In this document: piece by piece, positions 11,002 to 33,314 of the stretch
How positions within the stretch are numbered: position 1 is the stretch's first letter
Layout of the letters: the number at the start of each line of letters is the position of its first letter
NCBI RefSeq assembly: GCF_900091595.1
Contig: NZ_FMCW01000018.1
Coordinates: 62,001 to 126,000 of the forward strand
Source: Micromonospora haikouensis
Lineage (GTDB): Bacteria; Actinomycetota; Actinomycetes; Mycobacteriales; Micromonosporaceae
Length of the DNA stretch: 64,000 bases
Direction of reading: 5' to 3'
Notes under the pieces: generated by a model
Told to the model about the DNA's origin: nothing
Database searches by the model: none
Seen by the model: the letters and a program-made list of their open reading frames with translations, nothing else
Made by a program: the position numbers and the translations under genes

Positions 11002-11006
11002 CGTCG

Positions 11007-16883: not shown

Positions 16884-16954
16884 GTGGACGGTCTCCTCCG
16901 ACGGGTGGTGGTGAGCCGGTGGATCATGCCGCGTTCCTGCGGCGGGCGCGCTAC

Positions 16955-16978
16955 CTCGATGTTTACGCAAACATCGAG
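16955..16978. promoter_or_regulatory. LacI-type operator between GH30 and lacI-family gene
   Basis: Inverted repeat CTCGATGTTT-ACGC-AAACATCGAG: 10-bp arms match perfectly around a 4-bp centre. The TTTACGCAAA core is typical of LacI/GalR operators. It lies 72 bp upstream of the GH30 start and 130 bp upstream of the regulator start, so one site could control both. Confidence 0.85.
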
Positions 16979-17107
16979 TGTTGCGATGCTCCCAGTCGGC
17001 CCGTGGCCCGTCAAGCACGGCCGGCATACTGGGCTGCGCCGCGTGAGCACCGCGGCGGAGCCGGCGCGAGGCGCCGGCCGCAGGCGGGGCGAGAGGAGCG
17101 AGGCGGG

Positions 17108-18181
17108 ATGAGTCGGTCCGGCCCCGACGGGGCGACCCAGGAGCCCACCGGCGCGGGCCGCCCCCGCGCCGGCCGGCGGCGGGGCGTCTCGATGGCCGAC
17201 GTGGCGCGGCTGGCCGGCGTCTCCGCGCAGACCGTCTCCCGCGTCTCCACCGGTCACCCCGGCGTCGTCGACAGCACGCGGGAGCAGGTCCTCGCCGCCA
17301 TGCGGCAGCTCGGCTACCGCCCCAACAGCGCCGCCCGCGCGCTCAAGTACGGCGAGTTCCGCACCATCGGCGTCATCCTGTTCACCCTGTCGAGCACGGG
17401 CAACAGCCGCACCCTGGAGGCGATCGCCACCCACGCCGCCGACGCCGGCTACGTGATCACCCTCATCCCCGTCGGGGCCCCCACCCAGGACCGCCTGCTC
17501 GGGGCCTTCACCCGGCTCGGCGAACTCGCCGTCGACGCGGTCATCGTCATCATGGAGGTGCACCTGCTGGACGCGGCGACCGTCGCCGTCCCACCCGGCG
17601 TGCACGTCGTCGTGGTCGACTCCGACGCCGGCGACCGCTACCGCGTCGTCGACACCGACCAGGCCGACGGGGCCCGCCAGGCCGTGCACCACCTGCTCGA
17701 CCTCGGGCACCGCACCGTGTGGCACGTCGCGGGGCCCCGGGAGTCGTTCGCCGCGCAGCGGCGCGCGCTGGCCTGGCGTACGATGCTGCAGGAGCGCGGC
17801 CGCCCGACGCCGCAGGTGCGCCGCGGCGACTGGTCGGCGGAGTCCGGCTACCGCGCCGGCCTCGACCTGGCCGGCGACCCCGACTGCACGGCGGTCTTCG
17901 TCGCCAACGACCAGATGGCCCTCGGGGTGCTGCGCGCGCTGCACGACCGGGGCCGGTCCGTGCCCCGCGACGTCAGCGTCGTGGGCTTCGACGACATCGC
18001 CGACGCGGGAGCGTTCATCCCGCCCCTGACCACCGTCCACCAGGACTTCGCGGAGGTCGGCCGCCGCTGCGTCGAGGCGGTGCTGCGCCAGGTCCGCACC
18101 GGCGTGCCGGAGACCGGCACGACCCTGGTCTCCACCCGCCTCGTGGTACGCGAGAGCACCGCGCCCCCGCCGGGCGGCTGA
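17108..18181 (+). CDS. LacI family transcriptional regulator
   Basis: 357 residues. The N-terminal helix-turn-helix reads MADVARLAGVSAQTVSRVSTG, followed by the hinge helix VLAAMRQLGYRPNSAARAL, which reads the operator minor groove. The remainder is the sugar-binding periplasmic-type fold, ending with the FVANDQMALGVLRALHDRG and VGFDDIADAG segments. The ATG at 17108 follows GAGAGGAGCGAGG. Divergent from the GH30 gene, so it most likely represses that gene and itself until an oligosaccharide binds. Confidence 0.93.
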   Translation: MSRSGPDGATQEPTGAGRPRAGRRRGVSMADVARLAGVSAQTVSRVSTGHPGVVDSTREQVLAAMRQLGYRPNSAARALKYGEFRTIGVILFTLSSTGNSRTLEAIATHAADAGYVITLIPVGAPTQDRLLGAFTRLGELAVDAVIVIMEVHLLDAATVAVPPGVHVVVVDSDAGDRYRVVDTDQADGARQAVHHLLDLGHRTVWHVAGPRESFAAQRRALAWRTMLQERGRPTPQVRRGDWSAESGYRAGLDLAGDPDCTAVFVANDQMALGVLRALHDRGRSVPRDVSVVGFDDIADAGAFIPPLTTVHQDFAEVGRRCVEAVLRQVRTGVPETGTTLVSTRLVVRESTAPPPGG

Positions 18182-20081: not shown

Positions 20082-20483
20082 ATGTGGGCGGACGAGGCCG
20101 CGCTGGACGCGGCGACCCGCCGGCTCGACGAGTGGGAGTCGTCGATCGCCGACCGGGCCGCCCGCGCGCAGGCGCTGTCGGCGCGGGCGCGGGCCCTGAC
20201 CGGCACCGCCCGCAGCCCCGACCGCGCGGTCGAGGTCACCGTCGACGCCACGGGCCTGCTGGTCGACCTGCGGCTCGACGAGCAGACCCGGCAGCACCCG
20301 GCGGCACACACCGCCCGGCAGATCGTCGCCACGACCCGGGCCGCGCACGCCGACCTGCTGCGGCAGCTCACCGAGGCGACCACGCAGACCCTCGGCGACG
20401 ACGACCCGGCCAGGCGGGCCATCATCGACGGCCACCGGCGGCGGCTCGACCCCGGCCAGGGCCCGCCCGATGGCCGCCGGTGA
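20082..20483 (+). CDS. YbaB/EbfC-family small protein
   Basis: 133 residues, mostly helical, with the central EVTVDATGLLVDLRLDE segment of YbaB-like proteins in actinobacterial WXG/ESX-type clusters. The ATG follows GGGGAGGG at good spacing. It overlaps the next gene by 14 bp and so heads a co-transcribed cassette of EspC-like protein, toxin and immunity candidates. DNA binding is known for classical YbaB but not established for this subgroup. Confidence 0.75.
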   Translation: MWADEAALDAATRRLDEWESSIADRAARAQALSARARALTGTARSPDRAVEVTVDATGLLVDLRLDEQTRQHPAAHTARQIVATTRAAHADLLRQLTEATTQTLGDDDPARRAIIDGHRRRLDPGQGPPDGRR

Positions 20484-20790
20484 CGGCATCCGGGTCGACC
20501 CCGGCGACCTGACCGCCCACGCCGCCCACCTGGAACGCTGCGCCGGCAGCCTCGACACCGCCCGGCAGGCCGGGCAGCACGTCCGGCTGGACGCCGACGC
20601 GTACGGCCAGCTGTGCGCGATCATGCCGGTGCTGCTCGACGGCCTCCAGCAGACCCTGGTCGACGGCGTCGACGCCGCAGCCCGGTCGGTACGCGACACC
20701 GCCACCAGGCTGCGCTCCGGCGCCGACAGCTACCGGGCCGCCGACGCCCGCGCCGAGCAACGGCTGCACCGGGTGCGAGACGCCCGGTGA
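20470..20790 (+). CDS. EspC-like/WXG100-type secretion-associated protein
   Basis: 106 residues, a predicted helical hairpin: IRVDPGDLTAHAAHLERCAGSL at the start and a second long helix ending in YRAADARAEQRLHRV. The pattern fits EspC/DUF2580-like partners of type VII secretion substrates. The start overlaps the YbaB-like gene and the stop overlaps the toxin start (GTGA). It probably acts as the secretion partner of the next protein. Confidence 0.7.
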   Translation: MAAGDGIRVDPGDLTAHAAHLERCAGSLDTARQAGQHVRLDADAYGQLCAIMPVLLDGLQQTLVDGVDAAARSVRDTATRLRSGADSYRAADARAEQRLHRVRDAR

Positions 20791-21980
20791 CCGGCAACCC
20801 GCTCGTCGCCGCCCCGGCGGGCGGCGCGCCCAAGGCGTGGGCCGGCATCTGGATCTGCGAGGACATCGAGCTCATCGCGCAGGGCGTACGCGACGGCAGC
20901 TGGATCGACGGCAGCCTCGGCGTGGTCAGCGCCGGCCTCGACGCCCTCGCCTTCGTCTCCGACCCGGTCGGCGCCCTGCTCCAATACGGCATCGCCTGGC
21001 TCATCGAGCACGTCAAGCCCCTCAGCGAGGCGCTGGACTGGCTCGCCGGCGATCCGGCGCAGATCACCGCGCACGCCCAGACCTGGCGCAACGTCGCCGC
21101 GTCGCTGCGCGACGACGCCGCCGAGCTGACCCACGCCGTACGCACCGAGGTCGCCGGCTGGGGCGGCGACGCCGGCCCCGCCTACCGGTCCTGGGCCGCC
21201 GGGCAGCACCAGGCGATCACCGGTCTCGCCCAGGCCGCCGACACCCTGGCCGCCATCACCGAGGGCGCCGCCGGCCTCGTCGCCGCCGTCCGGCTCCTGG
21301 TCCGCGACGCCATCGCCACCTGCGTCTCCCGCCTCATCGTGTACGCGGGAGAACTCGTCGCCACCGCCGGCCTCGCCACACCGGTGGTCGTGGAGCAGGT
21401 CACCACCACGGTGGCGTCGTGGGCGGCGCGGATCGCCCGGCTGCTACGCGGGCTGCTGGCCAGCCTGCGGCGGCTGATGCCGCAGATCCGGCGGCTCGGC
21501 GAGCTGATCGAGAAGCTGAAGCAGGCCCTGGGACGCCTGCTCAGCGGCGGTCGAGCAGGCCGAAGGGACCCGTCGCAGCCACTGCCGCCTCACAGCCCCG
21601 AGCCGCCGCGTCTCGATGAAGAGCGGCGGATCCACGAACTCGGCATGGATCCGGCGACGGGCAAGTTCCGGCCCAGTGAGGCCGAGACGGCTGCCCGGCT
21701 GGAGCGCGAACTGGACGTCACTCTGACCCGTGCACCCGAAGGCTCATCCGCCGACTGGGTCGATGGCAGCGGGCGCACGTACGACGCAGTAGGCAACTTC
21801 CCAGGCCAATACTTCGACCGGCAGTGGCCTCAGCTGCAGTATCAGATCGAGCGACACCTGACCAAGGCCGACCTCGTGCCGGTTGACGTCTCGCAATTCT
21901 CCGGGGAGCAGGTCGCTAGGATCGAGCAGTTCATAGCCGATCGGGGCTTGGGCCCGCGAGTGTTCATTGTGGGGAAGTGA
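20787..21980 (+). CDS. Polymorphic toxin with CdiA-type C-terminal nuclease domain
   Basis: 397 residues, GTG start overlapping the upstream stop (GTGA). Residues 1-250 form the delivery part: hydrophobic and helical, with a WGG turn at 125-127 as in WXG-like secretion substrates. A Pro-rich linker (about 262-275) leads to a C-terminal domain (about 283-397) with DWVDGSGRTYDAVG, HLTKADLVPVDVS and a closing RVFIVG, which resembles the CdiA C-terminal tRNase-type domain. Base usage becomes less GC-rich from the linker on, as expected of an exchangeable toxin tip. Cleavage target is inferred. Confidence 0.78.
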   Translation: MTGNPLVAAPAGGAPKAWAGIWICEDIELIAQGVRDGSWIDGSLGVVSAGLDALAFVSDPVGALLQYGIAWLIEHVKPLSEALDWLAGDPAQITAHAQTWRNVAASLRDDAAELTHAVRTEVAGWGGDAGPAYRSWAAGQHQAITGLAQAADTLAAITEGAAGLVAAVRLLVRDAIATCVSRLIVYAGELVATAGLATPVVVEQVTTTVASWAARIARLLRGLLASLRRLMPQIRRLGELIEKLKQALGRLLSGGRAGRRDPSQPLPPHSPEPPRLDEERRIHELGMDPATGKFRPSEAETAARLERELDVTLTRAPEGSSADWVDGSGRTYDAVGNFPGQYFDRQWPQLQYQIERHLTKADLVPVDVSQFSGEQVARIEQFIADRGLGPRVFIVGK

Positions 21981-22303
21981 TGGCTGGCCTCATCGTGCTG
22001 AAGCCCGGCGTCGACTGGACGGTGACGGGCGGCCTGTTCGACTGGACGCTGGAGTTCCTCATCCCGAGGCTCTCCGACAGGACGGTCGCGGACCAGCTCC
22101 AAGAAGTCGTCGACAACAACCTCGGCTCGGTCTGGGTTCACGAACTGCCGCCAGATGCGCAGGCGGAGATCGTCAGCCACTGGCGGCAGGGCCTGGTGGC
22201 CGCAGGAAAGCAGGATCTGCCTGAGAGCGAGCACAAGGCCGACGTGATTCACCGCCTCCAGGAGCTGGTGGATGCCACCTACACCGCCGGTTATCCAGGA
22301 TGA
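21980..22303 (+). CDS. Candidate immunity protein for the adjacent toxin
   Basis: 107 residues, ATG sharing its A with the toxin stop (TGATG); GTG 21977 is an alternative start. No recognised family. It is acidic, with a WTVTGGLFDWTLEFLIPRLSD start and a helical C-terminal half. Size, tight coupling to the toxin and position immediately 3' of it are the reasons for the immunity call; nothing in the sequence proves it. Confidence 0.6.
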   Translation: MAGLIVLKPGVDWTVTGGLFDWTLEFLIPRLSDRTVADQLQEVVDNNLGSVWVHELPPDAQAEIVSHWRQGLVAAGKQDLPESEHKADVIHRLQELVDATYTAGYPG

Positions 22304-22318
22304 GGTGAGGCCGACGCA

Positions 22319-22735
22319 TTGAAGACGGTGGGGTTCTTCCGGGAACTCGGCCCGGACCCGGTCGAGGTCTATGCCGAGAGCATCCGTGCTCACTTGGCTC
22401 CGGATCCACTCCCCGACACCGATCGCGTGACAAGCTACCTGCGCGACGGGCACGAGTTGATCGACGTAATGGGCGCAGAGCTGGACGTCCTCGGCAGCGG
22501 CCGACACCTCGTCGGCGGGGCGTCGGTCATGACCGACGGCGAATGGCTCTGGCGCGACGACCTCCGGTTCTACGTAGCGACCTACCACGTACGCCTCCCG
22601 GACGACTTCCTCGCCCACATCAGCGCGAACGACCATCACGTTCCTGACCTTCGGATCGAGGACCCTCGCGCGGCGGGCAAGGAAGCGATGCGCATCCTTG
22701 GCTACCATCGGCCACCGGCCGCATCGCTCCACTGA
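22319..22735 (+). CDS. Unrecognised protein, possible second immunity gene
   Basis: 138 residues from a TTG preceded by GAGGTGAGG; GTG 22328 is an alternative. No family recognised. Acidic N-terminal half (GPDPVEVYAESIRAHLAPDP), a DGEWLWRDDLRFYVATYHV core and a His-rich C-terminus. It follows the candidate immunity gene by 15 bp and ends the cassette, as orphan or accessory immunity genes often do. Confidence 0.6.
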   Translation: MKTVGFFRELGPDPVEVYAESIRAHLAPDPLPDTDRVTSYLRDGHELIDVMGAELDVLGSGRHLVGGASVMTDGEWLWRDDLRFYVATYHVRLPDDFLAHISANDHHVPDLRIEDPRAAGKEAMRILGYHRPPAASLH

Positions 22736-23365: not shown

Positions 23366-25504
23366 CTAGGATCGCGGCAGGAACGGGCTGGGTGACCCGC
23401 TCCACGACACGTGCAGCGCCTCTCGGGCGCGGGTGGCCGCGACGAAGAGCAGGCAGCGTTCGCGCAACAGGTCACTGTCGTGCTGCACCTGGTCGACCTC
23501 GCTGGGCGTGACCTCCTTGGTGAAGGGGACCACCTTCGCCGTCACCCCCACCACCGCGACGCAGCGGAACTCGAGGCCCTTCATCGCGTGCAGCGTGGCG
23601 AGGCGTACGCCGTCGGCGTCCGCGCCGGGCTGGTCGCGTACCCGGACGGCGGGGATGCCGGCGGCGGTCAGCTCGTCGTACACGGTGTTGAGCAGCAGGT
23701 TGAACCGCGCGCAGATGGCGATCTCGCCGGGCTGGACGCCCTGGTCGAGCCACTTGCCCACCCGCGTCACCAGCGCCGCGACCTCGGCCTGCTGCGTGTC
23801 GTGCCCCTGCGCGTGCGGCCGGGTGCCGTGCAGCAGCGACCGGTAGCCGGCGAGGCTGTCCTCGCCCTCGCCCCCGAGGTCGTCGACCCGGGACCCGACC
23901 AGCACGCCGGCGGCCCAGGACAGGATCTCCTCCGTGTTGCGGTAGTTGATGCGCAGCCGGCTGCTGCGCCCCGTGACGGAGATGCCGAGGGCGCTCAGCG
24001 ACACCCGGGAGTCGTAGATCCGCTGGTGCGGGTCGCCGGTGACGAACAGGTCGTCCGGTCCGGGCGCGACGGCGGCGCGCAGCACCCGCCACTGCGCGGG
24101 GTGCAGGTCCTGGGCCTCGTCGACCACCACGTGGTCGAAACCGTGGACGCTCAGGTCGACGCCGTCGAGCAGCTGCGCGGCCCGCGCGCACACCTGCAGG
24201 TGCGTCAGGTTGCCGGCGGCCGACAGTTCGGCCAGGAACATCTCGACGGCGTCCCACACCTGGTCGCGTTGCCGGGTGCCCAGCGCCGTCCCGCGGCCCC
24301 GCCGGCTGGCCGCGCGGTAGTCGTCGCGGCTGCGCACGTCCTGGGCGAGGACGACGTGCCGGAACTCCTGCGCGAGGAACTGCTCGGGCCAGGGCAGGTC
24401 GAGCCGCCGGCACACCCGCCGCCACACCTGCCGTTCGTCGGCGTCCCCGATCGGTGCCGCGACCCGGCCGGCGAGCGCGCGCACGCTGCGGCTGGCGAAG
24501 GCGTTCACCGTGGTCACCTCGACCCGCGCCAACTGCTCGTCGTCGCCGAGGAGCAGCGCCAGGTGCTCCCGCAGGGTCGCGGCCAGGGCATTGGTGTACG
24601 TGGTGAGCAGCACGCGACTGTCGGGCGTACGGGAAAGGAGGTGTTTGACCCGGTGCAGCGCGACCACCGTCTTGCCGGTGCCCGGCCCGCCCGTCACCTG
24701 CGCCGGCCCCTTGTAGGACACCCGGTAGGCGACGCGCCGCTGCGACGGGTGCAGGAACACCCGCCAGGCGGCGAACGGCTTGTCGAGGATCTCGGCCAGC
24801 TCGTCGGGCCGGGTCACCAGCGTGATCCGGCTGGCGGTGTTGGCGATCGCCATCGCCAGGCTCTCGCTGGGCTCGGTCGGGGCGTCGGCGGGCCGGCGTT
24901 CGACGACCAGGTCCCGGTAGACCTCGTCGGGCGAGAAGCCCTCGGCGAGATACTGCAGCACCTCGAACTGGTCCTCGGGCAGCAGCGTGCCGAACGCCTC
25001 CAACTGCGGCTTGTCGACGATCGTCCGGACGGCCCGCAGCACCTGGTCGTCGATGCCGAGGTTCCGCAGCGCCGTGTCCGAGTGTTTGGCGAACAACAAC
25101 GTCGGCGCCCCGGCCGCCGCCTTCTCCAGCGCCGGGGTCAGCTGCTCGATGGCGGTGACGTTGCGGACCTCCAGCGCCCGCGTCGCCGTGTTGACGGTGT
25201 AGAGGCGCTTCGCCGCCCAGGTGTACGCGTCGTCGTGCGGCACGACGTTGAGCAGCAGAAACGTGTCGCTGCCGTCGTCGGGGGCGAGCACGACCCCGCG
25301 CCAGAAGTCGTTGATCCTGATCGTACGCATGCGCGGGTCCCGGGCGTTGTGCACCGACTCCAGGTGCAGGCCCTTGTCGGCACGCAGCTCGGCGATGGTG
25401 AGCTGCTGGAACTTCTCCATCGCCTTGCGTACGCCGGCCTTGACCGGCTTCTCCAGGACGTCGAAGCTGTGCCAGAAGCTGTTGGCGAAGGCGAGCTGCG
25501 GCAC
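23366..25504 (-). CDS. UvrD/Rep-family helicase with N-terminal RelE-like domain
   Basis: 712 residues. Residues 1-110 resemble a RelE/ParE toxin fold (LAFANSFWHSFDVLEKPV, HNARDPRMRTIRINDFWRGVV). SF1 helicase motifs follow: Walker A GGPGTGKT (272-279), Walker B VVDEAQD (460-466), GDPHQRIY (490-497), INYRNT (519-524), LHAMKGLEF and FVAATRARE. All key ATPase residues are present. It lies 42 bp downstream of the DUF262/DUF1524 nuclease gene on the same strand, so the two are probably one operon. Association of a UvrD-like helicase with a GmrSD-type nuclease suggests a phage-defence role; that is inference. Confidence 0.85.
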   Translation of the reverse strand: MPQLAFANSFWHSFDVLEKPVKAGVRKAMEKFQQLTIAELRADKGLHLESVHNARDPRMRTIRINDFWRGVVLAPDDGSDTFLLLNVVPHDDAYTWAAKRLYTVNTATRALEVRNVTAIEQLTPALEKAAAGAPTLLFAKHSDTALRNLGIDDQVLRAVRTIVDKPQLEAFGTLLPEDQFEVLQYLAEGFSPDEVYRDLVVERRPADAPTEPSESLAMAIANTASRITLVTRPDELAEILDKPFAAWRVFLHPSQRRVAYRVSYKGPAQVTGGPGTGKTVVALHRVKHLLSRTPDSRVLLTTYTNALAATLREHLALLLGDDEQLARVEVTTVNAFASRSVRALAGRVAAPIGDADERQVWRRVCRRLDLPWPEQFLAQEFRHVVLAQDVRSRDDYRAASRRGRGTALGTRQRDQVWDAVEMFLAELSAAGNLTHLQVCARAAQLLDGVDLSVHGFDHVVVDEAQDLHPAQWRVLRAAVAPGPDDLFVTGDPHQRIYDSRVSLSALGISVTGRSSRLRINYRNTEEILSWAAGVLVGSRVDDLGGEGEDSLAGYRSLLHGTRPHAQGHDTQQAEVAALVTRVGKWLDQGVQPGEIAICARFNLLLNTVYDELTAAGIPAVRVRDQPGADADGVRLATLHAMKGLEFRCVAVVGVTAKVVPFTKEVTPSEVDQVQHDSDLLRERCLLFVAATRAREALHVSWSGSPSPFLPRS

Positions 25505-25546
25505 GGACGGGACCTCCGGGGCGGTGGATCGGGTCAGGCGGATCGG

Positions 25547-28087
25547 CTAGGCGAGGGCGGCTTCGTCGGGGGCGCTGAGCTGCGCCTGGTCGTAGAACCA
25601 GCGCAGGTGGTCGAGCAGGGCCTCGCGGGCGTCGGCGTCGGCGAGGACCGTCAACGGAAAGCCCGGCCGCAAAGTCAGCTTGGCAGCGGCGATCCTGACG
25701 CCCGGCAACTGGTTCAACCGCTGCCGCAGCTCCTCCCGCAGGGTCACGTCGTCGAACGGCGTGCGGACGCTGAGGTGCTGGAAGACCACCTCGAACTTTC
25801 CGCCCGGGTAGATCACGGCCGGCCAGATGCTGCCCAGTTCGTGTTCCCTACGCCGGGCCATCAGGAAGCAGGATGTCTCCCCGCCGGTGCCGTAGGACAG
25901 GGTCCCGCCCAGCGTGGTCCATTCCTCGAGCAGCACGAGCACGGCGGTGGTGACGGCCGGGCTCTGCCGGGCGGTGAGCTGCTCGATGAACCGGTCGGCG
26001 TAGGTCCCGCCCTGGCCCGGCCCGGGTCGGGGGGCACGTTCGGGCAGTTCCTCCGGCGTGATGCCGGCGAGCTGCGCCAACTCCTCGACGGTGATGCGCT
26101 GGGCCTGGTCGGCGCGGCCGTACTGGTCGAACGTCACGCCCTCGGATCGGAGCACGTCACGCGGGTCGTCGGTGCGGTCGGGTTCGAGCCACTTGAAGTT
26201 GCCCGCGACGATCCCGCCGGCCTGGAGCACCCGGTGGGCGTTCAGGGTCGGGTGGTTGGCCAGCCGGTTCCCCACCGGCTGCGCCGCCGTGCCGATCAGG
26301 GCGGCCAGGTCGCCGTAGGTGGTCCACGAGCCGGCCGGCAGCTCGGCGAGGGCCTTCGCCAGCACGTCCCAGGGCACGTCGGACTGGTTGCCGCTTTCCT
26401 CGGTGGGGCCCGGCCAGCTGGTGATGATCCGGTCGGCGAGGGTGTCGGCCCGCGCCAGGATCTCCGAGCGGCCCCACCGCTGCCGGTCGGCGATGTCCCG
26501 GCTCAGCTGGACACCGCTCTTCGCCAGGGCAGTCCGCTTGGCCGCGAACGGCTTGTTGCTCAACTCCGAGTTGTAGCCGGTGAGGGTCAGGTTGCCCAGG
26601 GTGTGCACGAGCGCGTCGTGCGCCTCGCCGGGGGTCTCGTCCGTGTCGAGGTCGGCGGCGAGCATCTGCGCCCACTCGTCGCTGAGGGTCTGCGGCAGCA
26701 CGTGTTCGATGGTCAGCTTCTCCAGCGCCACCGGCTCCTTGCTGCCGTGGGACTCCTCCAGCCAGCGCAGCACCAGGCTGCGCTGGCTGGCCCGGCCGTT
26801 GAGATAGAACGGGATGGTCCGCACCAGGGCACGCAGGCTCGCGTCGGTGGCCCAGTGCTTGCGGCCCGTCGACAGGTACTTCCGCACCGCCTCGTGGACC
26901 GGCAGGTCCCGGTCCATCTCGGTGACCACGGCGAGCAGGATGCGGTTGATGTTCATCGTGCTCCGGCCGATCAGCAGCCGCCGGACGAAGAAGCTCTCCA
27001 GGTACAGCATCGCGGCGGCGATCTGCGCGGAGGTCGCGGTGCCCTGGTCCCGTCGGTCGAGCAGGTGCAGCAGCACCGGGTAGACGGTGGTGGTGCCCCA
27101 CGCGCTGAGCCGCTCCAGCCGCTGCCGTACGCCCGGGTCGTGTTCCTCGGCGGGGTGCAGGATCACCCGCAGCAGCGCGCCGAGCCGGCTGAACCGCTGC
27201 ACCTCGGCTTCGACGGCCGCTTCGGTGTGCAGCTTCTCGAGGCGGGCCTGCTGGCTCGAGTACGTGTCGGTCTGCTTGACCTTAGGGTCGCGGTGGACCA
27301 GGTCGAGCCAGAAGAGCAGGACCAGCTCCGTCGGGGTGAACCGCTGCTGCAGCGGCAGCCAGAGCGACTCGTAGACGGCCTGTCCCCGGTTGGGCAGCCG
27401 CATGAAGATGTAGTTGCGCAGCAGGTCGGCCTGGGTGAGCGTGAGCCCGGTGTTGTTCAGCGACTCGAAGATCCGGTAGACGTTGTCGCCGGTTCTGGCG
27501 GTGATCGCCACCAACGCCAGGCCGGTGATCACGGCGCTCTCGATCTGCTGGACGGTGATCGGTTCCTCGGCGGCGCCGAGGTTGTCCAGCGCCTTGGCGA
27601 AGAACTGGTACGCCCGGCCCACCGCGTTGTCCCCGCCGGCCTGCGGCGTGGACTTCACGCAGGCCACGTACGCGTCCCGGTCGGCCTGGGTGGGGACCAG
27701 CTTCAACCAGCGCTGCTCCTCGAACGGGTTGGTCAGATACTGCTGGTCGAGCCGGAGCCGGTGCTTCTCGCCCTCGTGCTCGGCCCGGTGGTCGCGGATG
27801 GCGCAGAGCAGGATGGTCAGCGTGGTGAGCCGCTGCTGACCATCCACCACGAGGTATTCGGCGACGCCGACCGGCCCCATGGTCGGGCTCGGCGCGAGCA
27901 CCAGCGAGCCGATGAAGTGGGTGGCGTCCGGGTGGTCGACCCGGTCCCTGGCGAGCTGGCAGACGTCGTCCCAGATCCGTTTGAGTTGAATCTCGGTCCA
28001 CGAGTAGGTCCGCTGGTAGAGCGGCACGTGATACTGCTTCGCCCCCTCCAGCAGAGCCTGCAACGTGGTTTCCTGCGCCGTGACCAT
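25547..28087 (-). CDS. GmrSD-like nuclease: DUF262 + DUF1524 HNH + alkyltransferase-like domain + C-terminal domain
   Basis: 846 residues. DUF262 (about 10-400) has the VPLYQRTYSW entry (21-30) and the VVDGQQRLTTL nucleotide-binding motif (DGQQR 82-86). A DUF1524 HNH-type nuclease follows with IEHVLPQTL (His 462) and LGNLTLTGYNSELS (497-510). Residues 571-635 form an MGMT/ATL-like module (GSWTTYGDLAALIG) in which the usual PCHRV active site reads NAHRV (616-620), so the alkyl-acceptor Cys is absent. A further unassigned domain fills 690-846. The ATG at 28087 follows GGGGA; the frame upstream is noncoding. First gene of an operon with the UvrD helicase. Related GmrSD and BrxU enzymes cut modified phage DNA. 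Confidence 0.85.
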   Translation of the reverse strand: MVTAQETTLQALLEGAKQYHVPLYQRTYSWTEIQLKRIWDDVCQLARDRVDHPDATHFIGSLVLAPSPTMGPVGVAEYLVVDGQQRLTTLTILLCAIRDHRAEHEGEKHRLRLDQQYLTNPFEEQRWLKLVPTQADRDAYVACVKSTPQAGGDNAVGRAYQFFAKALDNLGAAEEPITVQQIESAVITGLALVAITARTGDNVYRIFESLNNTGLTLTQADLLRNYIFMRLPNRGQAVYESLWLPLQQRFTPTELVLLFWLDLVHRDPKVKQTDTYSSQQARLEKLHTEAAVEAEVQRFSRLGALLRVILHPAEEHDPGVRQRLERLSAWGTTTVYPVLLHLLDRRDQGTATSAQIAAAMLYLESFFVRRLLIGRSTMNINRILLAVVTEMDRDLPVHEAVRKYLSTGRKHWATDASLRALVRTIPFYLNGRASQRSLVLRWLEESHGSKEPVALEKLTIEHVLPQTLSDEWAQMLAADLDTDETPGEAHDALVHTLGNLTLTGYNSELSNKPFAAKRTALAKSGVQLSRDIADRQRWGRSEILARADTLADRIITSWPGPTEESGNQSDVPWDVLAKALAELPAGSWTTYGDLAALIGTAAQPVGNRLANHPTLNAHRVLQAGGIVAGNFKWLEPDRTDDPRDVLRSEGVTFDQYGRADQAQRITVEELAQLAGITPEELPERAPRPGPGQGGTYADRFIEQLTARQSPAVTTAVLVLLEEWTTLGGTLSYGTGGETSCFLMARRREHELGSIWPAVIYPGGKFEVVFQHLSVRTPFDDVTLREELRQRLNQLPGVRIAAAKLTLRPGFPLTVLADADAREALLDHLRWFYDQAQLSAPDEAALA

Positions 28088-28520
28088 CCCGCACCCGTCC
28101 CCTTTGGACCCACCCTTGAGCCGGCAAGACAACCAGATCGATGCAGCCGGGGGCAACACGCACGGCAGGTTGCCGCGTCGGATAGCCGACAGCGGGTGGC
28201 GGTCACCCGATCGGGCGGCGCGACGGGCCCGATCGACCGCGCCCGTTGACCGAAAGTGCATAGCCGGAAAGGAACACCGACGGGCGTTCCGGCACATCTC
28301 GCAGAATGCATTCAATTAGCTCGAATGAATTATGTATCCGACCATTGCCGCAACCATCGCGGCCCCGGGGCGCGTGGGTATCCATTCACGACATGTCGCA
28401 CCATTGACGACGCCGCACGTCTCAACAACGAAACGATTCCGTGGCGAATATGGCGGCGAATGCATCCGGCCTCGTATTCATAGATCCAGATCAGGATACT
28501 GAATGCTCCGAGGAGGAACG
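28088..28520. other. Divergent intergenic region, AT-richer
   Basis: 433 bp between the nuclease operon (minus) and the acyltransferase (plus). It is clearly less GC-rich than its surroundings (around 28300-28350 and 28430-28500). It probably holds both promoters. Short frames here have no ribosome site or family match; no clear operator is seen. Confidence 0.5.
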
Positions 28521-29780
28521 ATGTCCACTGAAGCCGACGCGGCGCATTCAGCGCCCGCACGACCCGCCGGCCCGGAACGGCCGGCGTCACCACCGCCCGT
28601 CGGCGGGCCGGACCACGCCGGCCCGCCCGACCGGCCGCGCACCAGGTTCCGTGGCGACATCGAGGGAATCCGGGCGGTCGCCGTGGTGACGGTGATGCTG
28701 TTCCACGCCGGCGTGCCGGCGCTCTCCGGCGGCTTCGTCGGCGTCGACGTCTTCTTCGTCATCTCGGGCTATCTCATCACCACCCAACTGTTGTCCGAAC
28801 AGCACCGGACCGGCGGGGTCGCGCTGATGGGCTTCTACGCCCGCCGGGCCAAGCGGCTGCTGCCGGCGGCCAACGTGGTGCTGCTGACCGCAGCGGTGTT
28901 CGTGTTCCTGATGGTGCCCCGTGGCCGGTGGGGTCAGATCGGCGGCGACATCGTCGCCGGGGCGTCCTACCTGTTGAACTGGCGGCTGGCCGAACGCTTC
29001 GCGAACCCCGACCCGACGATGCCGCCGTCCCCCGTACAGCATTTCTGGTCGCTTGCCGTCGAGGAGCAGTACTACCTGATCTGGCCGTTGCTGATCCTGC
29101 TGGCGGTGGCGCTGGCCAAGGTGTCCGGCGCCCGACTGAAGCCGGTGCTGGCGACGGCGCTGGGCCTGCTGGCCGCCGGCTCGCTGGCCTGGTCGGTGAC
29201 CACCACCGTCGGCGCGCAGTCCCCGGCGTTCTTCCAGACCACCACCCGGATCTGGGAGCTGGCCGTCGGCGCGGGCGTCGCCATGTCGGTCGGGGCGTGG
29301 GCCCGGCTGCCCAGGCCGGTCGCTGTCGTGCTGGGCTGGGCCGGGCTGGCGGCGGTGCTGGTGGCCTGCCTGTCCTTCACCCCGATGATGGACTTCCCCG
29401 GCTACACGGCCGCCCTGCCGGTGCTGGGCACCGCGGCGGTCATCGCGGCCGGCTGCGCCGCCCCGGCCAGGGGCGGGGTGGGGACCGCGCTCGGGGTCGC
29501 GCCGCTGCGCTGGATCGGCGCGCTGTCGTACTCGCTGTATCTGTGGCACTGGCCGATGATCGCGATCGCGGCCACCTACTGGGGACCGCTGTCGACGTCC
29601 ACCGGCCTGCTGGTGATCGCGCTGTCGACCGTCCCGGCCTGGCTGACCTTCCACTTCGTGGAAAACCGCATCAGATACTCCCGGCGGGTCTCGCAGTCGC
29701 CACGGCTCACCCTGGGCATCGGGGCCGGTTTCTCCGCGCTGGGCGCGCTGGCCGGCGTCGCGCTGCTGCTGGCGGGCTGA
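28521..29780 (+). CDS. OafA/YrhL-type membrane acyltransferase
   Basis: 419 residues, acyltransferase family 3. A 40-residue Pro-rich cytoplasmic N-terminus is followed by RFRGDIEGIRAVAVVTVMLFHAG, whose His is the catalytic one, then GGFVGVDVFFVISGYLI and about ten hydrophobic segments. SVEEQYY-type (LAVEEQYYLIWP) and SLYLWHWP motifs are present. ATG follows GAGGAGGAACG. Unlike many OafA homologues it ends right after the last membrane helix and lacks the C-terminal SGNH domain. It probably transfers an acyl group to a cell-surface glycan or small molecule; the acceptor is unknown. Confidence 0.88.
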   Translation: MSTEADAAHSAPARPAGPERPASPPPVGGPDHAGPPDRPRTRFRGDIEGIRAVAVVTVMLFHAGVPALSGGFVGVDVFFVISGYLITTQLLSEQHRTGGVALMGFYARRAKRLLPAANVVLLTAAVFVFLMVPRGRWGQIGGDIVAGASYLLNWRLAERFANPDPTMPPSPVQHFWSLAVEEQYYLIWPLLILLAVALAKVSGARLKPVLATALGLLAAGSLAWSVTTTVGAQSPAFFQTTTRIWELAVGAGVAMSVGAWARLPRPVAVVLGWAGLAAVLVACLSFTPMMDFPGYTAALPVLGTAAVIAAGCAAPARGGVGTALGVAPLRWIGALSYSLYLWHWPMIAIAATYWGPLSTSTGLLVIALSTVPAWLTFHFVENRIRYSRRVSQSPRLTLGIGAGFSALGALAGVALLLAG

Positions 29781-29786
29781 CCGGGT

Positions 29787-29818
29787 CCGGCGCCGACCGT
29801 CCACCCGGTCGGCGCCGG
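29787..29818. terminator. Intrinsic terminator after the acyltransferase
   Basis: Hairpin with 13-bp perfect arms CCGGCGCCGACCG (29787-29799) and CGGTCGGCGCCGG (29806-29818) and a 6-base loop, starting six bases after the stop codon. There is no T-run, as is common in high-GC actinobacteria. Confidence 0.8.
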
Positions 29819-29948
29819 GCCGATGGCCGCGACGTCAGACCGACGGAAAATGGTACGGCCCAGAATGTCTGATCCTGGCCCCGTCGCTCGTCGGTAGGAC
29901 GAATGCCGCCCGGCGGCCTGCCGAGCGGTTCCGGCCATGGAGGTTGAC

Positions 29949-30887
29949 ATGACGTACGCCTTTGACGCGGAGCTGGCGCCGTGGGTGCCGATGCTGCCCG
30001 TCCTCGATCTTCGTGACCCGGCCGCCGCGCGCGAGGTCGGACGGGCCATCGCCGCCCAGCTTCCCCCGCCCGACCTGACCGGCCTCACCGTGCTCGACCG
30101 CACGGTGCCCGGCCCGGCCGGCGCTCCCGCCGTCCCGGTGCGGATCTACACCCCGCAGCCGTTGGCGGCGTCGGCACCGGCCGTCCTGCATCTGCACGGC
30201 GGCGGCTTCGTGCTCGGCGACCTGGCGCTCGAACACGCCGACGCCGCCGAGTTCGCCTCCGGCATCGGGGCCGTGGTGATCGCCGTCGACTACCGCCTCG
30301 CGCCGGAGGCGCCCTTCCCGGCGGCGCTGGAGGACAGCTACGCGGTGCTGTGCTGGCTGGCCGGCAACACCGACGAACTCGGCGTGGACCCCACCCGCCT
30401 GGGCATCTACGGCCGCAGCGCCGGTGGCGGGATCGCCGCCGGCCTCACCCTGCTGACCCGCGACCGTGGCGGCCCGCGGCTGGCCATGCAGTATCTCGAC
30501 GTCCCGGTGCTCGACGACCGGCTCGACAGCGTGTCCATGCGCGCCTACGTCGACACCCCGATCTGGAATCGCCCCAGCGCCGAGCTGGGCTGGGCCCACT
30601 ACCTCGGGGACGGCGTCAGGCCCGGCGACCCGGGCGTGTCACCGTACGCCGCCCCGGCCCGCGCGGAGGATCTCGCCGGGCTGCCGCCGGCGTTCGTCTC
30701 AGGCTGCCAGTTCGATCCGGTACGCGACGAGGGGATGCGCTATGCGCAGCGGCTGGCCCACGCCGGCGTGCCGACCGAGGCGCACCTCTACCCGGCCACG
30801 TTCCACGGCTCCGCGCTGGTGACCGAGGCGGCGGTGTCGCGGCGAATGCGGCGGGACGCGGTGGCCGCCTTCCGCCGGATGCTCTGA
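29949..30887 (+). CDS. Alpha/beta hydrolase, hormone-sensitive-lipase family esterase
   Basis: 312 residues. Oxyanion-hole motif HGGGF, nucleophile elbow GRSAGG (Ser), acid in CQFDPVRDEG (Asp) and catalytic His in TFHGSA are all present, so it should be active on short-chain esters. The start is ATG 29949, with GGAGGT five bases before it; the upstream ATG at 29937 overlaps this ribosome site. No signal peptide. Placed after the acyltransferase terminator, so probably its own transcript. Confidence 0.9.
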   Translation: MTYAFDAELAPWVPMLPVLDLRDPAAAREVGRAIAAQLPPPDLTGLTVLDRTVPGPAGAPAVPVRIYTPQPLAASAPAVLHLHGGGFVLGDLALEHADAAEFASGIGAVVIAVDYRLAPEAPFPAALEDSYAVLCWLAGNTDELGVDPTRLGIYGRSAGGGIAAGLTLLTRDRGGPRLAMQYLDVPVLDDRLDSVSMRAYVDTPIWNRPSAELGWAHYLGDGVRPGDPGVSPYAAPARAEDLAGLPPAFVSGCQFDPVRDEGMRYAQRLAHAGVPTEAHLYPATFHGSALVTEAAVSRRMRRDAVAAFRRML

Positions 30888-30933
30888 CCCGCAGCCGGAT
30901 CGCATGGGCCCGGAGCGGCCGGGAGCCGTCCGC

Positions 30934-31815
30934 TCAGCCGTGGTGCGCCTCCTCGCCGATCTTGACGATCAGCCGCCGCGACTCCTCCTCGCCCAGCGCC
31001 AGCGCCTCCAGGCCCGCCCAGGCCCTCTCGTACGGGGCCCACTCCGCCGGCCGGTCGAGATAGAGCGCACCGGTCAGCGACTCCTGGTAGACCACCGGCG
31101 GGTCGGGGTCGACACGCAGGCCGAGCGGGAAGTCCAGCAGCACGAACGAGCCGGCGACCGCCCCGTCGTGCGCCCCGGCGGCGAGCGGCAGCACCCGGAT
31201 CGACACGTGCGGCAGCCGGCTCGCCTCCACCAGGTGCCGGAGTTGCCCGGCCATGACCTCCGCGCCGCCCACCACCCGCAGCAGCGCCGCCTCGCAGAGC
31301 ATCACCTCGAACCGGGGCGGCCGGGGCAGCCGCCGTCGGAGCAGGCCCTGCCGCAGCAGCCGCGCCTCGACCGGCCGGTCCCGCTCCTCGTCGGTCGCGC
31401 CGGGCCGGGGCGGGCACGTCGCGGCAGCGTACGCCCGGGTCTGCAACAGCGCGGGCACCAGCGCCCCGGCGTGCACGCGCAGCCGGCACGCGGCGGACTC
31501 CAGGCCGCCGTGGAGGTCGAACCAGTCGGGCACGGGATCGCCGTAGGCGTGCCACCAGCCCCTCCCCCGCGTCTCGCCGGCCAGGGCGACCAGCGCGGCG
31601 GTCAGCTCGCGCCGCGCCCCGTACAGCTCGCACATGGCCCGCACGTCGACCCCGCGCGCCGGGCCGAGGCCGCTCTCGATGCGCCACACCTTCTGCCGGC
31701 TGCACTCCAGCGCCTCGGCCACGCCGTCCAGCGTCATGCACGCCTCGGTGCGCAAGTCCCGCAGCGCCCGCCCGAGCTGCCGACGCGGCACCGACGAGCC
31801 TGTGGCCTCAACCAT
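30934..31815 (-). CDS. XRE-family regulator with DUF5753 domain
   Basis: 293 residues. N-terminal helix-turn-helix (ALRDLRTEACMTLDGVAEALECSRQKVWRIESG) and a C-terminal DUF5753 sensor domain (LVPALLQTRAYAAA to YQESLTGALYLD). Such proteins are abundant in filamentous actinobacteria. ATG follows GGGAGGG. It overlaps by 8 bp the small basic gene upstream. In this class the regulator often pairs with a small partner protein (usually DUF397); here the partner is different. Confidence 0.9.
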   Translation of the reverse strand: MVEATGSSVPRRQLGRALRDLRTEACMTLDGVAEALECSRQKVWRIESGLGPARGVDVRAMCELYGARRELTAALVALAGETRGRGWWHAYGDPVPDWFDLHGGLESAACRLRVHAGALVPALLQTRAYAAATCPPRPGATDEERDRPVEARLLRQGLLRRRLPRPPRFEVMLCEAALLRVVGGAEVMAGQLRHLVEASRLPHVSIRVLPLAAGAHDGAVAGSFVLLDFPLGLRVDPDPPVVYQESLTGALYLDRPAEWAPYERAWAGLEALALGEEESRRLIVKIGEEAHHG

Positions 31816-32080
31816 CGGAACCCTCCCCGCGCCGCTGGGCGGGCAACTGCGACCGGTAGCGGTCCGCGCGCTGGTTCGGCCGGTCCGCCGCCCGCCGCCG
31901 CTCGGGCCACCCGTGGCCGACCGCGCCGTCACACCGCGAGGTCGCCACCCCATCGGGTACGACCGCCTCGACCACCCGCCGCCGCCAGCGCCCCGGCCCG
32001 TCCGCGTCGGGCACCACCTGCCCGGTCAGGTCCACCGCGACCTTCCCGGCCCGCAAGAACCACTTCCACCGCCTACCCAT
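31808..32080 (-). CDS. Small Arg-rich hypothetical protein
   Basis: 90 residues starting MGRRWKWFLRAGKVAVDL, no known family. A strong GGGGAGG precedes the ATG, and the stop lies inside the start region of the XRE gene (8-bp overlap), which supports real translation and coupling. The N-terminal third looks conserved in style (basic, hydrophobic) while the Arg-rich tail is low complexity. Possible partner of the XRE regulator. Confidence 0.6.
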   Translation of the reverse strand: MGRRWKWFLRAGKVAVDLTGQVVPDADGPGRWRRRVVEAVVPDGVATSRCDGAVGHGWPERRRAADRPNQRADRYRSQLPAQRRGEGSDG

Positions 32081-32121
32081 GCCGCCTCCCCTTCATCACG
32101 CCGTCGAAGTTTACAACCAAA

Positions 32122-32162
32122 CAAGTCTTTCAAGGCATAGACTTTAAACAAGGCATAGCTTG
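32122..32162. promoter_or_regulatory. Candidate operator/promoter region of the GntR gene
   Basis: AT-rich island with a direct repeat CAAGGCATAG at 32131-32140 and 32149-32158 (18-bp period), the second reading CAAG-GCATAG-CTTG, plus an inverted pair AAGTCT/AGACTT around the first. It lies 35 bp upstream of the GntR gene and 42 bp upstream of the small Arg-rich gene, where a shared operator would be expected. Confidence 0.55.
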
Positions 32163-32196
32163 CACCACGTGAAGCCGGCCGTGATGGAGTCGGCGC

Positions 32197-32433
32197 ATGG
32201 TGCCGTACGTGCCGCTGTGGCGAAGGATCCGGCAGGACATCCTGGACAGGATCAACGCCGGGATCCTGAAGCCCGGTGACAAGCTGCCGACGACCAAGGA
32301 GCTTGCCGATCAGTACGACACCTCGGGTGTGACGGTCAGGAAAGCCATCGACATCCTGATCGAGTCGGGCGTCCTGGAAGGTAGGCAGGGCATCGGCGTC
32401 TTCGTTGCCGACGACTCGGGACAGCAGTCGTAG
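32197..32433 (+). CDS. Short GntR-family (YtrA-like) regulator
   Basis: 78 residues, only the winged-helix domain: VPLWRRIRQDILDRINAGILKPGDKLPTTKELADQY, then SGVTVRKAIDILIESGVLEGRQGIGVFV. There is no ligand-binding domain, as in YtrA-like or plasmid/ICE-type GntR proteins. ATG follows GGAG. Direct repeats just upstream are likely its operator. Neighbours give no clear target. Confidence 0.85.
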   Translation: MVPYVPLWRRIRQDILDRINAGILKPGDKLPTTKELADQYDTSGVTVRKAIDILIESGVLEGRQGIGVFVADDSGQQS

Positions 32434-32475
32434 AGTGTCGCCAGGATCCTGAGGCCACAGCCTCCCGGACTCGCC

Positions 32476-33041
32476 TCAACCACCCTCAGCCCTTTCGCCG
32501 GCGGGATCTCGGATCCGGGAGAAGACGACGGCGTCAGCACGCCGGTCAGGAAAGGTCAGGAAGCTGCGCAGCACCCCCTCCTGCTCGAATCCGGCAGCGG
32601 CGAGGACCCGCCGGGACGCCTCGTTGTCCGGCTCGACCCACGCCTCCACCCGCGCGATGCCCGCGACATCCAGCGCCCACGAAGTAGCCAGCGTCGCCGC
32701 TCGCCTGGCATACCCATGCCCCCGCGCCGAGGGGATGAGCCAGTACCCGAGGCCGGCGACACCCGGCTGTGGTCGCAGCATGACCACAACCGAACCGACG
32801 GCCTGACCGGTCACGGCATCGGCGACCGCGAGCGAGATCCCTTGACCGCCCTCCACCCGGCTCCACTGTCTGCGAACGAACGCACCCGCCGCATCCACTG
32901 AGAATCCTTTGGAACCGTGGTGGCCTCGGGAATCCGCGGATCCAGGGCAGCCACCCGGAGGCAATCCAGATCATCCTCGCGCCACGGACGAAGGCGCACG
33001 ACCCCGTCAGTGAGTTCCACCGCAGGATAACCAAGCCCCAT
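32476..33041 (-). pseudogene. GNAT acetyltransferase, interrupted by a frameshift
   Basis: The N-terminal part (from ATG 33041: VELTDGVVRLRPWREDDLDCL to ATTVPK) and C-terminal part (QGISLAVADAVTGQAVGSV, the acetyl-CoA loop YWLIPSARGHGYARRA, then EPDNEASRRVLAAAGFEQEG) lie in different frames. The switch is at about 32905-32912 (CCAAAGG on the coding strand) and is repaired by one added base. The two parts together have the usual length and motif order of RimJ/RimL-type acetyltransferases. Either a recent mutation or a sequencing error. Confidence 0.8.
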
Positions 33042-33080
33042 CCCGCCAACGCTACCGCCGCAACCGCCCCCACTTGCCCC

Positions 33081-33230
33081 CGTGATCAAGAGAAAAGCGT
33101 CAGAGTTGATCTCGACGGTGACGCAAACCTCTTGATCACCGGCCCGGGACGCGGTGGGCACCGGCGCCCGGCGCGACAGAGGCCGGGGTGGGTGACGGGG
33201 TGATGACGTAGACGACTCAGCTCCATAGGA
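33081..33230 (+). repeat. Dispersed intergenic repeat, copy 2
   Basis: Same architecture as the copy at 23113: arms GTGATCAAGAG (33082-33092) and CTCTTGATCAC (33129-33139) around a near-identical loop containing AGAAAAGCGTCA, a variable GC-rich part, then CGTAGACGACTCAGCTCC (33207-33224). The middle differs in length (the copies span 150 and 168 bp), so the two ends are what is conserved. Confidence 0.85.
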
Positions 33231-33267
33231 CCCGTCCCCACTACGTCGACCGTCGTCTTCCACAACA

Positions 33268-33299
33268 ACGGGGAGGGACGATGATCCGTCCCTCCCCGT
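33268..33299. terminator. Intrinsic terminator of the YGQPA-repeat membrane protein gene
   Basis: 13-bp perfect arms ACGGGGAGGGACG (33268-33280) and CGTCCCTCCCCGT (33287-33299), 6-base loop, 15 bases beyond the stop at 33315. On the minus strand it is followed by TTGTTGTGG. Confidence 0.8.
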
Positions 33300-33314
33300 A
33301 TCGCTCGAACCGCC

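What the first reader, a model, noticed from the sequence alone, without database searches (positions are those of the whole stretch)
23366..28087. Candidate two-gene defence module: RelE-fold/UvrD helicase with a DUF262-DUF1524-ATL nuclease
The upstream gene fuses a GmrSD-type DUF262/HNH nuclease to an alkyltransferase-like domain whose active-site Cys is replaced (NAHRV instead of PCHRV) and to an unassigned C-terminal domain. The downstream gene joins a RelE-like N-terminal fold to a full SF1 helicase. They are 42 bp apart on one strand. An ATL domain could recognise alkylated or hypermodified bases and guide the nuclease. I know of GmrSD and of Gabija-type helicase systems, but not of this exact pair as a described system.
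Basis: partly seen in the sequence, partly recalled or inferred. Interest (0 to 1): 0.8.

Follow-up and report, generated by a model that had tools for sequence, protein, structure and literature searches.

The report
DNA nuclease–helicase pair in Micromonospora
Two neighbouring soil-bacterium genes, a DNA-cutting enzyme with a repair-type DNA reader and a helicase carrying a toxin-like domain, keep turning up together across actinobacteria in several arrangements, often beside known antiviral genes; each part is known but the combination seems to be a new variant of phage defence.

Summary
Gene A (25547-28087, minus) is GmrSD_N + GmrSD_C + an alkyltransferase-like (ATL) domain with Ala at the Cys position + a C-terminal domain. 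Gene B (23366-25504, minus) has a RelE fold (Z 9.6) fused to a UvrD/GajB-like helicase. Both are intact and under purifying selection.

Neither gene is new alone: ATL-bearing GmrSD proteins were reported in 2015, and B is homologous over its whole length (36%) to an ArmD-type protein of ARMADA type II. The partnership looks real: in 189 Streptomyces genomes 17 of 35 full-length A genes have B within 15 kb (0.09 expected), in arrangements that differ between clades (A→B, head-to-head, tail-to-tail, or with genes between).

B is no dedicated partner: 57 of 74 Streptomyces copies have no linked A, and in ten loci B abuts type I-E cas genes. In two relatives an SNF2-methyltransferase pair, A and B lie on one strand in that order (one with an extra helicase gene), so A takes the place of ARMADA's YprA helicase-nuclease. 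I propose a type IV restriction nuclease coupled to an ArmD-like helicase/RNase. No activity was tested, and the window pair has no recognised defence gene nearby.

The parts
25547..28087 (-). Gene A: GmrSD-ATL-C-terminal-domain protein, 846 aa (stop included in coordinates)
   Evidence: dN/dS 0.26-0.34 against three relatives
27404..28057 (-). DUF262/GmrSD_N domain, residues 11-228; DGQQR at 82-86
   Evidence: Pfam PF03235 1.5e-33; motif invariant in 15 of 15
26432..26851 (-). DUF1524/GmrSD_C (HNH-type nuclease) domain, residues 413-552; His462
   Evidence: Pfam PF07510 6.9e-23; His invariant in 15 of 15
26135..26356 (-). ATL-like winged-helix domain, residues 578-651; Ala617 at the Cys position, Pro604 at the Arg-finger position, Tyr591 kept
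   Evidence: Pfam PF01035 1.7e-8; best structural match S. pombe Atl1 3gx4, Z 10.5, rmsd 3.3, 96 residues; best PDB sequence match Atl1 3gva, 4.5e-7
25550..26005 (-). C-terminal domain, about residues 695-846; no Pfam match; also found at the C-terminus of ~380-aa proteins; weak structural resemblance to the T4 MotA C-terminal domain
25505..25546 (.). 42-bp gap between A and B
23366..25504 (-). Gene B: RelE-UvrD (ArmD-like) protein, 712 aa, GTG start
   Evidence: dN/dS 0.17-0.26
25211..25504 (-). RelE-fold domain, residues 1-98; E49, R60, R63, R69, H90, D91 invariant in 20 of 20 homologues
   Evidence: dN/dS 0.10-0.26
24770..25159 (-). Mostly helical linker region, residues 116-245
   Evidence: predicted model
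23399..24742 (-). UvrD/GajB-like SF1 helicase core (Walker A 272-279 with Lys278; DEAQ from 462)
   Evidence: PF00580, PF13361; PADLOC GajB 2.8e-34; motifs
23408..33308 (.). Segment missing in the relative G203, whose flanks match at about 95% nucleotide identity farther out; G203 keeps about 42 nt of the end of B

Best explanation
A and B form a modular anti-phage unit of type IV restriction character. Step 1 (inferred): A binds DNA through its ATL-type winged helix and its C-terminal domain and, gated by nucleotide hydrolysis in the DUF262 domain, cuts foreign, probably modified, DNA with its HNH domain, as GmrSD-family enzymes do. Step 2 (inferred): B, an ArmD/GajB-like UvrD translocase, loads on the ends or single strands so produced, unwinds them and so prevents repair. 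Step 3 (inferred): its RelE-type domain, held inactive until the helicase engages DNA, cleaves mRNA and gives a second, growth-arresting layer. Shown here: the domains, intact catalytic motifs, purifying selection, the RelE and ATL folds, and recurrent physical linkage of A and B in several gene arrangements. In related operons A takes the position that the YprA helicase-nuclease ArmC has in ARMADA type II, so A-B is best seen as a GmrSD-ATL plus ArmD-like recombination of known defence parts.
For: Domains and motifs. B is homologous over 708 residues (36%, 3e-127) to the last of four genes of an E. coli plasmid operon annotated DEAD/DEAH helicase, DNA methyltransferase, DEAD/DEAH helicase, ATP-dependent helicase, the ARMADA II order; I did not compare it with the tested ArmD itself. 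The ARMADA preprint reports that deleting any of four genes, or changing the ArmD Walker A Lys, abolishes protection, while a Walker B change gives partial loss (passages). Linkage: 17 of 35 full A genes in 189 Streptomyces genomes have B within 15 kb (0.09 expected), genome co-occurrence Fisher p 1.6e-5; 18 of 28 named loci with both flanks at least 7 kb. Micromonosporaceae sample, read by hand: 12 of 17 genomes with a full or split A have B (7), a decayed B (2) or an ArmD-like helicase of 39-40% (3) within about 10 kb. Arrangements fall in different B clades. Short GmrSD-ATL proteins without the C-terminal domain: 0 of 9. SNF2-MTase-A-B in G006 and SNF2-MTase-A-helicase-B in G193, all on one strand.
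Against: No activity was tested. 18 of 35 Streptomyces A genes and 57 of 74 B copies have no linked partner by the same rule. B also sits beside type I-E cas genes in ten loci without A. None of 20 scanned neighbours of the window pair matches a PADLOC profile; an SNF2-MTase-YprA trio lies on another contig of the genome. Linkage counts are not corrected for relatedness. The only control with related nucleases is small: 9 short GmrSD-ATL loci, one of them (L093) really a split full-length gene; in the family sample one of 12 short A matches, G147, does lie beside a YprA-ArmD-like pair (by hand). A second control that I had planned, ten short matches in Streptomyces, failed: on inspection none is a GmrSD protein. 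The profile comparison of the RelE domain with YoeB was not significant (probability 0.5%, E 0.12), so RNase activity rests on fold and conserved polar residues only.
Confidence: 0.48

Rival explanations
1. A and B are two independent defence genes that share islands. Each works alone (A as a solitary GmrSD type IV restriction enzyme, B as an accessory helicase of many systems) and their closeness only reflects clustering of defence genes.
For: B occurs without a linked A in 57 of 74 Streptomyces copies and beside cas genes; A occurs without B in 18 of 35; GmrSD enzymes of other species act alone (recalled; PMC4437046 seen only in the search listing). Other defence genes are near A too: by my reading, DrmB in 6, a kinase in 9 and an N6-methyltransferase in 7 of the 28 full named loci.
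Against: B is the most frequent neighbour (18 of 28) and directly adjacent in 8 of 28; short GmrSD-ATL proteins, also defence genes, show 0 of 9; tight spacing recurs in different orientations (29-123 bp same strand, 50 bp head-to-head, 106-114 bp tail-to-tail).
Confidence: 0.27
2. The pair is part of an ARMADA-like operon (SNF2 helicase, PglX-like methyltransferase, exchangeable nuclease slot, ArmD). In the window it is a leftover or portable half that works with, or has lost, an SNF2-methyltransferase partner; self DNA would be marked by the methyltransferase.
For: SNF2-MTase-A-B in G006, SNF2-MTase-A-helicase-B in G193, SNF2-MTase-McrB-McrC-B in G059, and L062 with other-strand genes between; the window genome has an SNF2-MTase-YprA trio without ArmD on contig C54.
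Against: By my reading only four A-B loci (L062, L086, L161, L169) have such an SNF2-MTase pair; the window and L061 do not. The best PADLOC profiles for the G006 SNF2 and MTase proteins are DpdE and DrmMI, so calling them ArmA/ArmB-like is my inference. The C54 trio is only 25-33% identical to the query proteins.
Confidence: 0.18
3. The pair is an alkylation-repair module: the ATL domain flags bulky lesions and the UvrD-type helicase acts as in nucleotide excision repair.
For: ATL fold; UvrD motifs; ATL proteins hand lesions to nucleotide excision repair (recalled).
Against: Fusion to a GmrSD nuclease, loss of the Arg finger in 33 of 33, patchy distribution, defence-gene neighbours in relatives, and B is ArmD/GajB-like with a RelE domain; the NCBIfam UvrD and PcrA equivalog cut-offs are far from met.
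Confidence: 0.04

Closest known systems
GmrSD-family type IV restriction enzymes (GmrSD, BrxU, SspE)
   Same: DUF262 + DUF1524, DGQQR and HNH-region His conserved. Machnicka et al. 2015 (PMC4619093, passages) report PF01035 in several GmrSD homologues, mainly Streptomyces.
   Different: ATL-like domain without Cys or Arg finger, a further C-terminal domain, and a recurrent RelE-helicase neighbour.
ArmD of ARMADA type II (PMC12458937, bioRxiv September 2025; section 5 and passages)
   Same: N-terminal RelE-like domain plus GajB-like UvrD helicase; 36% identity over 708 residues to the protein in that position of an E. coli plasmid operon.
   Different: No ArmA, ArmB or ArmC found beside it in the window; a GmrSD-ATL nuclease instead. 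That paper's main text has no occurrence of GmrSD or DUF262.
Gabija (GajA nuclease + GajB helicase)
   Same: Nuclease plus UvrD-like helicase layout; PADLOC GajB profile 2.8e-34 over parts of B.
   Different: A is not an OLD/TOPRIM nuclease; GajB has no RelE domain (recalled).
Alkyltransferase-like proteins (S. pombe Atl1)
   Same: Best structural match of the domain (Z 10.5); Cys replaced.
   Different: Ala, not Trp as in Atl1, at the Cys position, and no Arg at the Arg-finger position.
ptuXYZ operon (PMC11980606, passages)
   Same: A DUF262 protein and a BECR/RelE-fold RNase in one putative defence operon.
   Different: PtuX lacks DUF1524, PtuY is a PtuA-like ATPase and PtuZ is PIN-like plus BECR fold; no UvrD helicase.

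Membership tests
GmrSD type IV restriction enzymes | DUF262 and DUF1524 in one protein | tested here: met
   PF03235 and PF07510 above cut-off
GmrSD type IV restriction enzymes | DGQQR motif and HNH-region His conserved | tested here: met
   15 of 15
GmrSD type IV restriction enzymes | cleavage dependent on DNA modification | not testable with these tools
   needs biochemistry
Alkyltransferase-like (ATL) proteins | AGT DNA-binding fold | tested here: met
   PF01035; Z 10.5 to Atl1
Alkyltransferase-like (ATL) proteins | active-site Cys replaced | tested here: met
   Ala in 32 and Gly in 1 of 33
Alkyltransferase-like (ATL) proteins | Arg finger for base flipping (feature recalled) | tested here: not met
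   Pro, Ala, Ser or Gly in 33 of 33, position placed by alignment to Atl1
RelE/ParE (BECR) toxins | RelE fold | tested here: met
   Z 9.6 to 2khe, proteins of this kind throughout the 50 rows shown
RelE/ParE (BECR) toxins | sequence-profile match | tested here: not met
   no RelE/ParE-family Pfam match at E up to 0.1 in 20 of 20; none in PDB sequences at E up to 10
RelE/ParE (BECR) toxins | catalytic residues equivalent to YoeB Glu/Arg/His (recalled) | tested here: inconclusive
   E49, R69, H90 invariant in 20 of 20, but E49 is not kept in two ARMADA-linked relatives and the profile comparison with nine YoeB-family proteins is not significant
ARMADA type II | RelE-UvrD protein ArmD | tested here: met
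   full-length homology to an ArmD-type protein of an E. coli plasmid; the tested ArmD itself was not compared
ARMADA type II | ArmA, ArmB and ArmC beside it | tested here: not met
   no SNF2, MTase or YprA gene of these clusters in the 18.5 kb around the pair (L180; MTase also by tblastn); none of 20 neighbours matches PADLOC
Gabija | GajA-type OLD/TOPRIM nuclease partner | tested here: not met
   the neighbour is GmrSD-ATL; no GajA match among 20 scanned neighbours

The most novel reading that the evidence does not exclude
ARMADA-like operons have an exchangeable nuclease slot between the methyltransferase and ArmD, filled by YprA-Vsr (ARMADA II), by GmrSD-ATL (G006, G193, L062) or by McrBC (G059). 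The window pair is the portable slot-plus-ArmD unit able to act alone, with the ATL and C-terminal domains as a new kind of DNA or modification reader that signals to a helicase-RNase giving a second, growth-arresting layer.
Probability: 0.3. Interest if true: 0.72.

Novelty: new variant of a known kind. Interest (0 to 1): 0.55.

Why it matters
If the pair works as proposed, a type IV restriction nuclease is coupled to a helicase with a built-in RNase-type domain: one layer that cuts foreign DNA and one that may stop translation. It would link GmrSD, Gabija and ARMADA mechanistically, give a function to a repair-derived ATL fold without its repair residues, and mark GmrSD-ATL and McrBC as exchangeable parts of ARMADA-like operons.

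Tried and rejected
Full-length helicase searches: P0002 hits every genome (200 of 200), as expected from other UvrD-type helicases, so linkage was counted with the RelE-plus-linker profile A3 instead. Phylum-wide draw (396 genomes): too few carriers to test linkage (a match over both the ATL and the C-terminal domain only in G000; five genomes, G000 included, with a full-length A3 match). Profile comparison with YoeB: not significant. PDB sequence search for the RelE domain: nothing. C-terminal domain: the best structural match beyond the ATL part is T4 MotA (1kaf, Z 6.2, rmsd 3.1, 98 residues), in the range the tool calls common, so not claimed; ~380-aa relatives with this domain match PADLOC PDC-S11 in their N-terminal part, and a PD-(D/E)XK reading of that part is by eye. 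Domain-wise dN/dS showed no consistent acceleration of the ATL or C-terminal domain. The label test on the B tree is not used as evidence of linkage, because loci were chosen by A or by B.

Fetching them showed no GmrSD domain in any of the ten (mostly 466-600-aa proteins with an ATL domain), so I withdrew that control and lowered the best explanation from 0.50 to 0.48 and raised the first rival from 0.25 to 0.27.

Rows dropped or set aside: gene maps were made only for loci of at least 60% GC (61 of 80 named loci and 39 of 40 others). One search then used loci with at least 7 kb on both sides (28 full, 9 short, 6 without ATL); five loci whose central gene was not found were left out, one of them (L077) a GmrSD-ATL without the C-terminal domain; L093 is a split full-length gene counted as short. 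One search used 35 A matches with E below 1e-70 and 74 of the 76 B places with E below 1e-30 (second fragments in G744 and G646 left out). Three further A loci with weaker B matches on the same contig (G721, G731, G692) were counted as unlinked, as was G773 (just over 15 kb). In the family count A fragments in G114 and G181 and the 47% full-length homologue in G070 were left out. My gene caller, trained on the A and B genes themselves, missed one intact methyltransferase in L169 (found).

Full report
What is there. Gene A (25547-28087, minus) encodes 846 residues with GmrSD_N (DUF262), GmrSD_C (DUF1524) and the DNA-binding domain of alkyltransferases, all above the Pfam cut-offs. Gene B (23366-25504, minus) encodes 712 residues with a UvrD-type helicase. 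The gap is 42 bp. The genome is a Micromonospora: a genome of its genus, G138, has the contig length and gene positions of NZ_RAZT01000006.1, Micromonospora musae.

The RelE domain is real although Pfam does not see it. No RelE-type Pfam family matches in any of 20 homologues and no PDB sequence matches, but a model built on 20 sequences from the window and named loci (pLDDT 90.5) matches RelE-type toxins: T. thermophilus RelE Z 9.6, rmsd 2.1 over 87 residues. Glu49, Arg60, Arg63, Arg69, His90 and Asp91 are invariant in 20 of 20; in a second alignment of 11 that includes more distant, ARMADA-linked relatives Arg63 and Arg69 remain invariant and Glu49 does not. By position Glu49, Arg69 and His90 resemble the catalytic set of YoeB (recalled), but a profile comparison was not significant. 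The RelE part is at least as constrained as the helicase (dN/dS 0.10-0.26 against 0.19-0.28).

The ATL domain. Its best structural match is S. pombe Atl1 (Z 10.5), and its best PDB sequence match is the same protein (4.5e-7). Ala replaces the Cys (32 of 33), Tyr591 is kept (32 of 33), but the Arg-finger position is never Arg (33 of 33). It probably binds DNA; flipping of O6-alkylguanine as in Atl1 is not supported by sequence.

The C-terminal domain (about 695-846) has no Pfam match. It recurs at the C-terminus of ~380-aa proteins whose N-terminal part matches the PADLOC candidate PDC-S11 and by eye carries an EVK motif like that of PD-(D/E)XK nucleases. Its weak resemblance to T4 MotA (Z 6.2) is noted only. 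A shared DNA-reading role is my inference.

Who else has it. ATL-bearing GmrSD proteins were reported in 2015, mainly in Streptomyces (PMC4619093, passages). The RelE-UvrD architecture was described in 2025 as ArmD, the fourth gene of ARMADA type II (PMC12458937, section 5 and passages). B aligns with the protein in that position of an E. coli plasmid operon over 708 residues at 36%. I found no paper describing A and B together in the searches; of most listed papers I saw only the listing, and most subscription papers are not held.

Linkage. In a draw of 189 Streptomyces genomes not chosen for either gene, 35 have matches over both the ATL and the C-terminal domain, and 63 have the B-type N-terminus (74 copies); 17 of the 35 have B within 15 kb (0.09 expected under random placement), and the two co-occur in genomes (Fisher p 1.6e-5). 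In 28 named loci with long flanks B is within 10 kb in 18 and adjacent in 8; GmrSD-ATL proteins without the C-terminal domain 0 of 9 (one of the nine is a split full-length gene, and one further short locus was dropped). In the Micromonosporaceae sample (with maps; read by hand) 7 of 17 genomes with a full or split A have an intact B within about 10 kb, 2 a decayed one, 3 an ArmD-like helicase of 39-40% identity, and 5 none; of 12 short A matches there one, G147, has an ArmD-like helicase near. Relatedness was not corrected for, but arrangements differ and map to different B clades: same strand A then B (Micromonosporaceae), head-to-head, tail-to-tail, and B upstream with an SF1-helicase/REase gene and often a ~280-aa gene between (Streptomyces).

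Neighbours in relatives. DISARM genes (DrmA, DrmB, DrmC), kinase, N6-methyltransferase, a PDC-S68 protein and type I R-M genes flank a number of these loci. In G006 an SNF2 helicase, a DrmMI/PglX-type methyltransferase, A and B follow each other on one strand; in G193 the order is SNF2, methyltransferase, A, a 416-aa helicase, B; in L062 genes on the other strand lie between; in G059 McrB-like and McrC genes take A's place. ARMADA type II has YprA in that place. The SNF2 and MTase proteins score best against DpdE and DrmMI profiles, and ARMADA shares these gene types with DISARM, so 'ARMADA-like' is my reading. This exchangeable-slot pattern is the most novel point; it rests on few loci. Ten Micromonosporaceae loci have B next to a cas3-cse1-cse2-cas7-cas5 operon, Pfam-checked in one of them and by clustering in the others.

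In this genome. Of 34 genes called between 7033 and 45339 besides the pair, 20 were scanned against PADLOC and none matches. On one side lies a WXG100/CdiA_C_tRNase polymorphic toxin gene, on the other an acyltransferase gene. G203, the relative with the best match to the left flank, lacks 23408-33308 but keeps about 42 nt of the end of B, which suggests loss there; the segment is variable. An SNF2-MTase-YprA trio without ArmD lies on another contig.

Mechanism. Shown: domains, folds, conservation, linkage. Inferred: A cuts modified or foreign DNA, B acts on the products, and the RelE domain adds an RNase layer. About half of the A genes have no linked B and most B copies no linked A, so A may work alone and B may be a shared accessory. 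I put the partnership with this mechanism at 0.48 (0.50 before the control was withdrawn).

Noticed in passing
L154-L160, L177-L179 (ten Micromonosporaceae loci): RelE-UvrD (ArmD-like) genes lie directly next to cas3 of type I-E cas operons, with a divergent Ser/Thr kinase gene in all ten and a small unknown gene and an N6-methyltransferase gene in nine; they form one clade of the B tree.
   Followed up: partly
L144 (G059) 7535-18001: SNF2 - methyltransferase - McrB-like (DUF4357+AAA) - McrC - RelE-UvrD, all on one strand: McrBC where ARMADA has YprA.
   Followed up: partly
L199 1495-2631 and L201 835-1980: The C-terminal domain of A is also the C-terminus of ~380-aa proteins that match the PADLOC candidate PDC-S11 in their N-terminal part.
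   Followed up: partly
L231-L240 (ten Streptomyces loci): Proteins of mostly 466-600 aa carry a related ATL domain (40-49% identity) but no GmrSD domain: the same ATL type is used in another, unidentified architecture.
   Followed up: no
G000:C54 1346-13214 (L230): SNF2 - methyltransferase - YprA-like trio in the window's own genome, with no RelE-UvrD gene beside it (ARMADA type I-like).
   Followed up: partly
window 20082-22735: WXG100-type polymorphic toxin cluster; the 20787-21980 gene ends in a CdiA_C_tRNase domain, and the relative G203 has a different sequence from inside this gene onward, as in toxin-tip exchange.
   Followed up: partly
L069, L074, L079, L100, L101, L104: Between B and A lies a ~1,950-aa gene (SF1 helicase with MTES_1575 REase domain, Pfam-checked in L104) and, in four of these six loci and in L076 and L082, a ~280-aa gene (no Pfam match in L069) directly upstream of A: possible further partners.
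   Followed up: no
L108, L171, L176: A full A gene (L171), a short one (L176) and an A fragment at a contig end (L108) lie beside a ~2,140-aa YprA-like gene (DEAD+MZB, Pfam-checked in L108) followed by an ArmD-like gene: another association of GmrSD-ATL with ARMADA parts.
   Followed up: partly
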